Part shown: positions 4,373 through 8,134 of the stretch, one piece after another
Layout: each line of letters starts with the position of its first letter
Numbering within the stretch: the stretch's first letter is position 1
Assembly: GCA_913056525.1 (NCBI GenBank)
Contig: CAJXLO010000014.1
Location: 1 to 35,669, forward strand
DNA from: an uncultured Psychroflexus sp.
GTDB lineage: Bacteria; Bacteroidota; Bacteroidia; Flavobacteriales; Flavobacteriaceae
DNA: 35,669 nucleotides
Direction: 5' to 3'
Made by a program: the position numbers and the translations under genes
The notes under the pieces: generated by a model
The model's input: only the letters and a program-made list of their open reading frames with translations
Database searches by the model: none
Told to the model about the DNA's origin: nothing

Positions 4373-5056
4373 ATGAAAATAAACAACATCCTATCTTTTT
4401 CCCTGATCATCTTTTTTATGGCTTGTGGGCCAAAGCCTCAGGAAGGTACGCCCGGAACAAAAGAAGATCAGGTAGAGCCAGAGGTTGCTCAGCCTCAATC
4501 CGATCAGGTCATTATTGCAAGTTCTTCTGAAGAAGAAAAAGGACAGCCACTGGTCGCCACGATCTTGAATCGAGCCGTAGGCGGTGCGGAAGGTGCGTTC
4601 ATAGGTCATAAGATGGACCAGCTGGCCGATCAGCTGGAGAAGCGATTCCCTATGGCGGAAGTGAGCAGGATTGGAGAAGGTATCCTGATGACCCTGGACA
4701 AGAAAAGCGATTTCTATTTTAAAGAGCAGACCACCGACCTATCTGAACAGCAGAAAGAGCAATTAGAAAAATTAAGCCGGATCTTCTCAATTTATAAACA
4801 AACCAAGATCCACCTAACCAATCATACCGATGCATTGGGTTCTGCTGAAAAGAATGATAAGATCGCTCGAAAAAGAGTAGAGAATATCGCGATACAATTA
4901 AAAGAACAACAGATCGAGAGCGACCGACTTGTTTTAAATTGGCACGGTCATGCCCAACCATCAGAAAACAAAGGAACGGACCAGCGATTAGAGATCGGCA
5001 TTATCGCCGGAAAGCAAATGCTAAGATCAGCGAAACAAAACGTTTCAGAAAGATAG
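4373..5056 (+). CDS. OmpA-family peptidoglycan-binding outer-membrane lipoprotein
   Basis: 227 residues. The signal peptide ends in the lipobox F-M-A-C (Cys18), followed by a low-complexity acidic linker. A glycine-rich stretch (VGGAEGAFIGHKMDQLADQL, about residues 69-88) is like those of YiaD-type proteins. The C-terminal half is an OmpA-like domain: SDFYFKEQTTDLSEQQKEQL, then TKIHLTNHTDALGSAEKND and an ARKRVENIAIQL helix. The usual GHTD motif reads NHTD and the second half ends in DQRLEIGI, so the peptidoglycan-contact Asp and Arg positions are kept. It probably tethers the outer membrane to peptidoglycan. The methyltransferase-like gene begins 32 bases downstream, so the two may share a transcript. 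Confidence 0.8.
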   Translation: MKINNILSFSLIIFFMACGPKPQEGTPGTKEDQVEPEVAQPQSDQVIIASSSEEEKGQPLVATILNRAVGGAEGAFIGHKMDQLADQLEKRFPMAEVSRIGEGILMTLDKKSDFYFKEQTTDLSEQQKEQLEKLSRIFSIYKQTKIHLTNHTDALGSAEKNDKIARKRVENIAIQLKEQQIESDRLVLNWHGHAQPSENKGTDQRLEIGIIAGKQMLRSAKQNVSER

Positions 5057-5088: not shown

Positions 5089-6105
5089 ATGGATAGATCC
5101 TTTTTACAAAAGAATTATACGAATTGGCTAAAAAGCCGGAAGATATTACAAAATATCGATGAAAAATTTGAAGACCAGGGAATCAGCTCATCCCAATTAA
5201 AAGCATTACTTGAAAACGCCGTGATGTACTTGCTTTTATATGAAAAGTACAGGGGAGAAGATCCATTGGCCCAAATAGAAGACAGACATATTGAAGAAGG
5301 TATCAGATGCGTAGGGCTACAGGATGATCTGGGCGATGCCGTTTTAACGATAAAAAGCATCATCCATAGTTCACAGATAGAAGGAAAGCAAGCAGAAAAG
5401 CTGGAACCCCAAGAAACGGAACTTTATTATAAAGTTGGTGATTTTAAGCTTGTAAAAAATCAATATACTAAAAAAGCCTTTGATCACGTGGCTTTGCACA
5501 ACGATGAGAAAACAGCCCTGATCAGTATACTGACCGCCGCGCTCAGATATGCATCCATCTTTTCCGAAACAAGACATATCGGGCCGCCAGAGCGAGTTTA
5601 CCAGTTATTTTACAATTGGGGCGTTCGTCATGAGGGCTTCGCATCACCGTTCAATGCGCGATTACTGGGCAAGGAAGATGCCCGATTTTATAGCTTGTTC
5701 TATGATACCGATGCGATATTCGGTAGCGGCGGAAGTTTTTTTGATCTGGAGGAACTACCCCAAAATGGACATTGGTGTCTGGACCCGCCTTTCATTGAAG
5801 AAACGATGGAACAAGTGGATAGCATCATCGCAGACCTTCAAAGTCAAAGGGCCGATTTTTCGATCATCTATATCATTCCATCTTCTCATCAACCAGCGAA
5901 CCCACCGGATGAGACGGTCAACTTAAAAGCTGGAAAGCATTTCTATGAAGGTCTGGAAGGAGTGATGAAACCTTTACCTGAGGATGTGAGCATCCACAGA
6001 TATGGAGCAATAGATGGTTTTTCAGCTGACGCCATCCAGGAAGGCTATTTACCTGACCAACCTAAAGTGGGAGCTTCCAGAAAATCCGACCGGTACAAGC
6101 CCTAG
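5089..6105 (+). CDS. PCIF1-like adenine N6-methyltransferase-fold protein
   Basis: 338 residues, cytosolic, with no signal or membrane segment. The region from about residue 165 to 270 resembles the catalytic core of PCIF1/CAPAM, the eukaryotic mRNA cap-adjacent adenosine N6-methyltransferase: GVRHEGFASPFNARL (178-192), then DTDAIFGSGGSFFDLE (206-221), then the amino-methyltransferase catalytic tetrad DPPF (232-235), then the hydrophobic strand SIIYIIPSS (258-266). The spacing FASPFN - FGS-GSFFD - [DN]PPF is what I know from PCIF1, where the tetrad is NPPF. There is no WW domain; the N-terminal 160 residues are helical and unrecognised. The substrate (RNA cap is excluded in bacteria) is unknown: DNA, rRNA, tRNA or mRNA adenine are possible. 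No nuclease lies beside it. Family assignment is from memory of motifs. Confidence 0.65.
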   Translation: MDRSFLQKNYTNWLKSRKILQNIDEKFEDQGISSSQLKALLENAVMYLLLYEKYRGEDPLAQIEDRHIEEGIRCVGLQDDLGDAVLTIKSIIHSSQIEGKQAEKLEPQETELYYKVGDFKLVKNQYTKKAFDHVALHNDEKTALISILTAALRYASIFSETRHIGPPERVYQLFYNWGVRHEGFASPFNARLLGKEDARFYSLFYDTDAIFGSGGSFFDLEELPQNGHWCLDPPFIEETMEQVDSIIADLQSQRADFSIIYIIPSSHQPANPPDETVNLKAGKHFYEGLEGVMKPLPEDVSIHRYGAIDGFSADAIQEGYLPDQPKVGASRKSDRYKP

Positions 6106-7688: not shown

Positions 7689-7722
7689 CAAAGATACGAA
7701 CCAATTTATTCTCGAGGGTCAA
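7689..7722 (-). promoter_or_regulatory. Promoter for the small lipoprotein, inside the end of the XRE gene
   Basis: On the minus strand a TTG (7720-7722) is separated by 23 bases from TATCTTTG (7689-7696), an exact -7 match. The -7 box ends only 4 bases before the lipoprotein ATG at 7684, which would give a leaderless or nearly leaderless mRNA. The alternative is cotranscription with the XRE gene. Confidence 0.4.
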
Positions 7723-8134
7723 AATTTTCAAAACTCCCATCTTCATAGCATAAGATAACCCTGACCAACTTTTTATTTGGATAATTAGAAACCGTGCTTT
7801 CCTTTTTAGAAGGTTCATCCGTCAGCTGATCATGTAGGCTTAATTGGTCTTCCTGCTTATCATGGTATTTATCTATTTCTATCTCCTTATCTTTTTGAGG
7901 TAAATTTTCGGTCGGGAAGGAGCCTTTTCCATTTAATAGCCAGTAGAGTTCTACCTCTGGGAAAGCTTTGACCGTTTTTAATACGAAATCTAAACTGGGT
8001 TTATTCCTTCCAGAAAGCAGATGGGAGATGGTAGCTTTTCCTACATTGACCTTTTCAGAAAATGAAGTAGCCGTTAGATCATAATGATCAAAGACTTTTT
8101 CTAATCGCTTAGCGAATTCCTCACTATTTACCAT
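7706..8134 (-). CDS. XRE-family transcriptional regulator
   Basis: 142 residues. The N-terminal helix-turn-helix domain (about 6-60) is of the lambda-repressor/Cro type: FAKRLEKVFDHYDLTATSFS, then VGKATISHLLSGRNKPS as recognition region, then LDFVLKTVKAFPEVELYWLLNGKG, a sequence common in Bacteroidota XRE proteins. A charged linker (80-115) leads to a short conserved C-terminal tail KKLVRVILCYEDGSFENFDP, probably a dimerisation or ligand element. One operator dyad overlaps its own start codon and another overlaps its -7 box, so it is probably autoregulated, and further dyads lie before the divergent peptidase gene. The assignment of these dyads to this protein is inference from position. Confidence 0.88.
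   Translation of the reverse strand: MVNSEEFAKRLEKVFDHYDLTATSFSEKVNVGKATISHLLSGRNKPSLDFVLKTVKAFPEVELYWLLNGKGSFPTENLPQKDKEIEIDKYHDKQEDQLSLHDQLTDEPSKKESTVSNYPNKKLVRVILCYEDGSFENFDPRE

What the first reader, a model, noticed from the sequence alone, without database searches (positions are those of the whole stretch)
5089..6105. Bacterial relative of the PCIF1 mRNA-cap adenine methyltransferase
The ordered motifs FASPFN (184-189), FGS-GSFFD (211-219) and DPPF (232-235) match the catalytic core of eukaryotic PCIF1/CAPAM (which has NPPF), an m6Am writer. The protein has a different, helical N-terminal half and no WW domain, and sits in an operon-like setting with an OmpA-type lipoprotein rather than in a restriction-modification cluster. 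A housekeeping-context PCIF1-like protein in Bacteroidota implies an undescribed adenine-methylation target in bacteria.
Basis: partly seen in the sequence, partly recalled or inferred. Interest (0 to 1): 0.75.

Follow-up and report, generated by a model that had tools for sequence, protein, structure and literature searches.

The report
Bacterial PCIF1-family adenine methyltransferase gene
A few bacteria, mainly of the genus Psychroflexus, carry a compact relative of PCIF1, the enzyme that methylates the first adenine of capped eukaryotic mRNAs; what it methylates in bacteria is unknown and worth testing.

Summary
It is a PCIF1-family methyltransferase by three tests: Pfam PF12237 (E 2.6e-19); profile hits in the PDB to human and zebrafish PCIF1 only, above noise (E ~3.5e-9, next 0.32); and an AlphaFold model (pLDDT 87) whose three PDB matches at E <= 0.001 are all PCIF1. 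DPPF follows a strand and aligns with the catalytic NPPF. The closest viral folds are PCIF1-like proteins of large DNA viruses, some of 315-362 aa, so the helical N-terminal half is probably a reduced PCIF1 helical domain, though its sequence support is weak. The gene is rare: 14 of 27 genomes of the genus (Psychroflexus), 0 outside it among 397 of the family, plus three scattered bacteria. It is under purifying selection and sits in several unrelated places. The OmpA/YchF setting is found only in this window (1 of 26 YchF loci), so 'housekeeping context' is not supported. A 2022 survey states that PCIF1 has no prokaryotic homologues (PMC8868631). Substrate is not shown; I favour RNA adenosine, possibly 5'-terminal.

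The parts
5089..6105 (+). PCIF1-family (PF12237) methyltransferase gene, 338 aa plus stop
5089..5586 (+). N-terminal helical half (residues 1-166), probable reduced counterpart of the PCIF1 helical domain
   Evidence: AlphaFold model; Foldseek CroV match; hhalign with the viral pair from residue 2, (weak in this half); domain limit is my reading of the model
5569..5589 (+). TRHIGPP (residues 161-167), invariant in 15 bacterial rows, absent from the two viral rows; candidate substrate loop
   Evidence: role is inference
5587..6054 (+). Rossmann-type methyltransferase half (residues 167-322)
   Evidence: PF12237 match residues 142-268; model; limits are my reading
5638..5655 (+). FASPFN motif (residues 184-189), aligned to FASPLN of PCIF1
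5719..5745 (+). FGSGGSFFD motif (residues 211-219)
5782..5793 (+). DPPF catalytic motif (residues 232-235) after strand 228-231, aligned to NPPF of PCIF1
4373..5056 (+). upstream OmpA-family lipoprotein gene; neighbour, linkage not conserved
   Evidence: PF00691
6208..7302 (+). downstream YchF GTPase gene; neighbour, linkage not conserved
   Evidence: PF06071

Best explanation
The gene encodes a compact, WW-less, stand-alone SAM-dependent adenine-N6 methyltransferase of the PCIF1/CAPAM family. Shown by homology, prediction or comparison: family membership, the methyltransferase fold, placement of the DPPF motif, purifying selection, patchy distribution and changing location. Inferred: SAM binding; the adenine N6 is held by DPPF and methylated; the helical half and the bacteria-specific TRHIGPP segment choose the substrate. 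The most likely substrate is RNA adenosine, with a 5'-terminal A (triphosphate, NpnA or NAD end) preferred by analogy with PCIF1. The gene has probably moved between bacteria several times. Its nearest viral folds are in large DNA viruses, several of them of protists, so an origin in viruses or protists is plausible, but its direction is not shown.
For: PF12237 E 2.6e-19. PDB sequence hits to PCIF1 only: E 9.6e-7 and 1.4e-6 from the single sequence, 3.4e-9 and 3.7e-9 with the 15-row profile, next hit 0.32. A 9-row profile with two viral rows gives about 5e-16, next 0.06. Model pLDDT 87.3, pTM 0.85. Foldseek PDB: 3 of 499 matches have E <= 0.001, all PCIF1. Viral models: of the best 8 (E 6e-12 to 4e-9), 6 bear PCIF1 or WW-domain names, all six from large DNA viruses; one is an uncharacterised poxvirus protein and one has no name. 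hhalign of the bacterial profile with the viral pair: 99.6 %, E 4.2e-24, window residues 2-289. dN/dS 0.07-0.18 in 6 of 8 pairs, all six within the genus; the 2 pairs with the window gave no dS. No stop inside any of the 14 carriers.
Against: No activity or substrate evidence. The bacterial rows have DPPF where PCIF1 and both viral rows have NPPF. N-terminal sequence similarity to PCIF1 is not detectable: significant matches begin near residue 167; with the viral rows only 2 of 30 invariant columns lie before residue 183 of L093, and the one N-terminal stretch that hmmsearch reported in L093 had 3.4 bits. Foldseek TM to PCIF1 is only 0.49-0.51 of the query with rmsd about 17. A Cellulophaga phage DNA methylase also reaches E 8.7e-5 among viral models. 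The protein is acidic (pI 5.10), unlike the positively charged groove reported for CAPAM (PMC7927073, passage); but 6 of 9 other window proteins have pI below 5.5. m6A caps are reported in E. coli (PMC7044304), while PF12237 was found in 0 of 14 control genomes (I was not told which genomes these are), so cap m6A need not depend on this family.
Confidence: 0.55

Rival explanations
1. It is an orphan DNA adenine methyltransferase (6mA) of regulatory or anti-restriction use, with the PCIF1 fold but a DNA substrate.
For: Viral models at E <= 0.001 (11 in all) include a Cellulophaga phage DNA methylase (E 8.7e-5, TM 0.30), and the fourth PDB match is a type I restriction-modification methyltransferase (E 5.3e-3). 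A jumbo-phage enzyme said to be nearest the PCIF1 clade is a PF05869 Dam protein (PMC7824862 passage). Patchy solitary genes are typical of orphan DNA methyltransferases, and D at the first motif position is common in them (both recalled).
Against: No PF05869 or other DNA-methyltransferase family matched at E <= 10. The 3 PDB matches at E <= 0.001 are the RNA-cap enzyme. DPPF also occurs in the rRNA enzyme ZCCHC4 (PMC7927073, passage). No restriction gene among the neighbours scanned.
Confidence: 0.2
2. It methylates one internal adenosine of rRNA or tRNA, as RlmF, RlmJ and TrmM do, possibly giving tolerance to a ribosome-binding compound.
For: Known internal m6A writers of bacteria share the N/DPPF logic (PMC8868631, PMC7927073, passages), and a sparse gene in changing places fits a resistance-type rRNA methyltransferase (recalled). 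In 12 of 17 carriers it lies next to a release-factor/ArsC pair.
Against: No family match to such enzymes. The release-factor linkage is confined to one clade; the 5 other carriers have other neighbours.
Confidence: 0.2
3. It is a captured viral or protist gene that is kept without a role in the bacterium, or is decaying.
For: Nearest viral folds are PCIF1-like; narrow distribution.
Against: Open in 14 of 14 carriers, dN/dS 0.07-0.18 in 6 pairs, gene GC within 0.045 of its locus in 17 of 17 bacterial rows, catalytic motif invariant in 15 of 15 rows.
Confidence: 0.05

Closest known systems
PCIF1 / CAPAM (human 6irv, 6irw; zebrafish 6irx-6irz), PF12237
   Same: FASP-N, FGS-G and (N/D)PPF in order; Rossmann methyltransferase; only PDB matches above noise by sequence and by fold
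   Different: No WW domain; 338 aa against crystal chains of 496 and 508 residues; DPPF not NPPF; N-terminal half not alignable by sequence; m7G caps are not the usual bacterial mRNA end (recalled)
PCIF1-like proteins of large DNA viruses (CroV E3T4I2, Tetraselmis virus 1, Pithovirus LCDPAC01 by fold; contigs L093, L102 by sequence)
   Same: Similar length (those five: 300-362 aa); CroV matches over 358 columns; L093 and L102 share LRYAS and FASPFN and have no WW domain in Pfam
   Different: L093 and L102 have NPPF and lack TRHIGPP; the L102 contig also carries PF01358, the poxvirus poly(A)-polymerase regulatory subunit family. WW domains were not looked for in the other viral proteins
Jumbo-phage enzyme AMM43637.1 (PF05869 Dam), proposed nearest to the PCIF1 clade
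   Same: Predicted adenine methyltransferase (PMC7824862, passage)
   Different: 180 aa, matches PF05869 and not PF12237

Membership tests
PCIF1 family (PF12237 methyltransferase domain) | Profile match above curated cut-off | tested here: met
   69.9 bits against 31.1; the genomes of L018, L027, L028 and L030 also pass, 4 of 4
PCIF1 family (PF12237 methyltransferase domain) | Methyltransferase fold with catalytic N/DPPF after a strand | tested here: met
   Model strand 228-231 then DPPF 232-235; Foldseek top three are PCIF1. Predicted, not solved; SAM pocket not examined
PCIF1 family (PF12237 methyltransferase domain) | Exact NPPF as in eukaryotic PCIF1 | tested here: not met
   D232 in 15 of 15 bacterial rows
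Eukaryotic PCIF1 orthologue | N-terminal WW domain binding the RNA polymerase II tail | tested here: not met
   Only PF12237 found at E <= 10; first helix starts at residue 3
Eukaryotic PCIF1 orthologue | Helical domain that with the methyltransferase domain holds m7G | tested here: inconclusive
   Helical half present; whole-length fold match to the CroV protein but no sequence match to the PCIF1 helical domain; cap-contact residues not compared
Eukaryotic PCIF1 orthologue | m6Am formation on m7GpppAm RNA | not testable with these tools
   needs an enzyme assay
PF05869 phage Dam | Profile match | tested here: not met
   no match at E <= 10; the phage protein matches PF05869 only, at E <= 1
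Restriction-modification system | Neighbouring restriction gene | tested here: not met
   20 neighbour proteins from the window, L018, L019, L027, L028 and L030 were scanned with Pfam and none is a restriction family; one is a secreted endonuclease I (L030) and two had no family. Only near neighbours; upstream of L028 not held. PADLOC was run on the protein itself only: 0 families

The most novel reading that the evidence does not exclude
A bacterial PCIF1 that writes N6-methyladenosine on the first nucleotide of RNAs with non-canonical 5' ends (NpnA, NAD or triphosphate), protecting them from decapping: a bacterial counterpart of cap m6Am, acquired from or shared with giant viruses.
Probability: 0.15. 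Interest if true: 0.85.

Novelty: new variant of a known kind. Interest (0 to 1): 0.52.

Why it matters
A 2022 evolutionary survey says PCIF1 has no homologues in prokaryotes and guesses that eukaryotes took it from them (PMC8868631, passages). Here are bacterial homologues, some on native contigs of megabase size, under selection, joined by profile to viral forms. They make two things testable: where the cap-adenine methyltransferase came from, and what such an enzyme does in a cell without ordinary m7G-capped mRNA. E. coli RNA carries m6Ap3A caps, and the paper that found them named the search for the methyltransferases of such caps as work still to do (PMC7044304, 2020, passages).

Tried and rejected
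Scans of viral contigs with the window protein (6 stretches matched a pattern) and with the 14-row alignment (1 stretch): none encodes a relative. tblastn against phages and plasmids: one weak match each, E 0.4 and 0.5, rejected. PHROGs: three families at E 0.17-0.49, rejected as chance. NCBIfam and PADLOC: none. Degenerate FASPxN...(N/D)PPF patterns in viral contigs gave 13 stretches; 2 of 13 (L093, L102) are relatives and 11 are not; a later scan with the 9-row alignment found only the same two contigs. A structure of the viral relative L093 was poor (pLDDT 63.1), so no fold search was made with it. The promoter and terminator scan was at chance level. The idea that ArsC or the release factor is a functional partner was rejected: the pairing is confined to one clade. 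A link to DNA methylation in Psychroflexus was sought: one sea-ice methylome paper (PMC12570018, passages) recovered a Psychroflexus genome, but it is not among the four genomes listed with motifs; whether it carries the gene is unknown, so I draw nothing from it. Contamination by eukaryotic DNA was rejected: two carriers are one-contig genomes of 2.6 and 4.3 Mb, although a few carriers are on contigs under 10 kb.

Full report
What is there. The ORF at 5089-6105 (+) encodes 338 aa. Pfam PF12237 matches residues 142-268 with E 2.6e-19, 69.9 bits against a cut-off of 31.1, and no other Pfam family matches at E <= 10. The model's name, PCIF1_WW, is misleading: PMC7641849 (passage) says that it is a CAPAM-like methyltransferase and not a WW domain.

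Relation to PCIF1 structures. Searched alone, the protein hits only human and zebrafish PCIF1 in the PDB (E 9.6e-7 and 1.4e-6, limit 10), and DPPF aligns with their NPPF. The 15-row bacterial profile gives 3.4e-9 and 3.7e-9, with the next hit at 0.32. A 9-row profile that includes two viral relatives gives about 5e-16, next 0.06. In all three searches the significant stretch is the methyltransferase half; the N-terminal half does not align significantly with PCIF1 by sequence.

Predicted fold. AlphaFold with the 15-row alignment gave pLDDT 87.3 and pTM 0.85: a mostly helical N-terminal half, then a Rossmann-type half in which DPPF (232-235) directly follows a strand at 228-231. Foldseek against the PDB gave 3 of 499 matches at E <= 0.001, all PCIF1 (8.2e-10 to 5.8e-9); the next, a type I restriction-modification methyltransferase, was 5.3e-3. 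Against viral models 11 of 356 matches have E <= 0.001. Of the best eight (6e-12 to 4e-9), six bear PCIF1 or WW-domain names and come from large DNA viruses, one is an uncharacterised poxvirus protein and one has no name; the other three (4e-5 to 9e-5) include a Cellulophaga phage DNA methylase. The CroV protein (362 aa) aligns over 358 columns with rmsd 5.1 and TM 0.64 of the query. The C-terminal half (about 156 of 338 residues) alone could give at most about 0.46, so the helical half must contribute; this is my arithmetic. For PCIF1 itself TM is 0.49-0.51 with rmsd about 17, so for the eukaryotic enzyme the match of the helical half is only weakly supported.

Viral relatives in DNA. Of 13 stretches found by degenerate patterns in viral contigs, 2 encode relatives. 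These are L093 and L102, PF12237 E 8.4e-21 and 6.5e-21. Their contigs carry a ubiquitin hydrolase (L093) and a PF01358 protein (L102), which suggests viruses of eukaryotes. The bacterial profile aligns with this pair at 99.6 %, E 4.2e-24, over window residues 2-289, but the strength lies in the C-terminal half: 28 of 30 columns invariant over nine rows are at residue 183 of L093 or later. Both viral rows have NPPF and lack TRHIGPP, whereas the bacterial rows have DPPF and TRHIGPP, 15 of 15.

Distribution. Among 100 relatives searched, 14 genomes carry the gene, the window's own included, all in the genus; that is 14 of the 27 genus genomes listed. In a family-wide profile search 3 of 397 genomes match, all in the genus, 1 of 237 genera. 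PF12237 is found in 3 of 395 genomes of the phylum, again all in the genus, and in 0 of 14 control genomes. The named-genome scan confirmed 14 loci of 169 candidate stretches: 10 titled Psychroflexus, one Flavobacteriaceae MAG that equals G002, Salibacter halophilus, a proteobacterial MAG and a Bacteroidetes MAG. Further searches found only the starting genome: 1 of 377 in the phylum of the proteobacterial MAG and 1 of 42 in the order of Salibacter. The named scan needs exact conserved peptides, so more distant bacterial relatives may have been missed, and most bacterial phyla were not sampled with the Pfam model.

Neighbourhood. One search gave 28 ArsC-type matches in the genus; I examined the 19 strong ones and left out 9 weak ones (E 1e-6 or worse, likely paralogues). 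In 12 of these 19 the gene lies directly after a release-factor/ArsC pair, and FumC follows convergently in 11 of the 12 within the stretch held. The other five carriers each have different neighbours: OmpA lipoprotein and YchF (window), a secreted protein and acetyl-CoA synthetase (L018), a secreted endonuclease I and a metallo-beta-lactamase-fold protein (L030), flagellin and a BCCT transporter (L027), and a fatty acid hydroxylase (L028, cut at the contig end). Only 1 of 26 genus YchF loci, the window's, has the gene next to YchF; in one of the 26 (L086) the upstream side is cut off. In a 19-row tree the window groups with Salibacter and the two MAGs rather than with the Psychroflexus clade, but at moderate support (90/82, below the program's own star) and with the window among the long branches flagged. 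Together with the change of place this suggests several acquisitions; it does not prove them.

Is it functional. dN/dS is 0.07-0.18 in 6 of 8 pairs computed, all six within the genus (one with dS 1.4, close to saturation); the two pairs that include the window had saturated dS and gave no value. Gene GC is within 0.045 of the GC of its locus in 17 of 17 bacterial rows. No stop lies inside any of the 14 carriers. The protein is acidic (pI 5.10), but of nine other window proteins computed six have pI below 5.5.

Mechanism. Shown by homology and prediction: a methyltransferase of the PCIF1 family with its catalytic tetrapeptide in place. Inferred: SAM dependence, transfer of methyl to adenine N6, and recognition by the helical half plus the bacteria-specific segments. 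Substrate is open. By kinship I prefer RNA adenosine, possibly 5'-terminal. PMC7044304 (passages) reports m6Ap3A and other methylated NpnN caps on E. coli RNA, says that methylation of such caps protects RNA from RppH, and names the search for their methyltransferases as future work. This gives a chemical setting in which a bacterial cap-adenine methyltransferase would make sense; it is not evidence that this gene is the writer.

Literature. PMC8868631 (passages) states that PCIF1 was found only in eukaryotes and lacks prokaryotic homologues. PMC7824862 (passage) proposes small jumbo-phage enzymes as nearest the PCIF1 clade; the named example, AMM43637.1, is a 180-aa PF05869 protein. [quoted passage not shown] In the listings I saw no paper describing a cellular bacterial PCIF1 homologue; most listed papers were not opened, subscription journals and sequence-database annotations were not covered, and Pfam may already list bacterial members.

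Verdict. A genuine and unexpected bacterial branch of the PCIF1 family, correctly spotted. It is a new variant of a known kind: without WW domain, DPPF, in changing places, of unknown substrate. The stronger claim of a housekeeping adenine mark in Bacteroidota is not supported by distribution or context.

Noticed in passing
L102:5196-6446 and L102:407-1309: On one viral contig the PCIF1-like gene lies about 4 kb from a PF01358 (poxvirus poly(A)-polymerase regulatory subunit family) gene.
   Followed up: partly
L044 (ArsC locus of genome G020): In one genome of the genus the place after ArsC holds a dehydrogenase E1-type gene instead of the methyltransferase gene.
   Followed up: no
window 7706-8134 (-): A small helix-turn-helix protein (PF01381) near the gene, possibly a relic of a mobile element.
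   Followed up: no
L093:6172-7206 (-): By eye, the viral relative starts with a hydrophobic stretch before the EYNRWLRSQ segment that resembles the bacterial N-terminus; start codon uncertain.
   Followed up: no
viral model R9ZWR4, Cellulophaga phage phi17:2: A DNA methylase of a phage of Flavobacteriaceae is a weaker structural match (E 8.7e-5, TM 0.30) and might be a link between phage and PCIF1-type enzymes.
   Followed up: no
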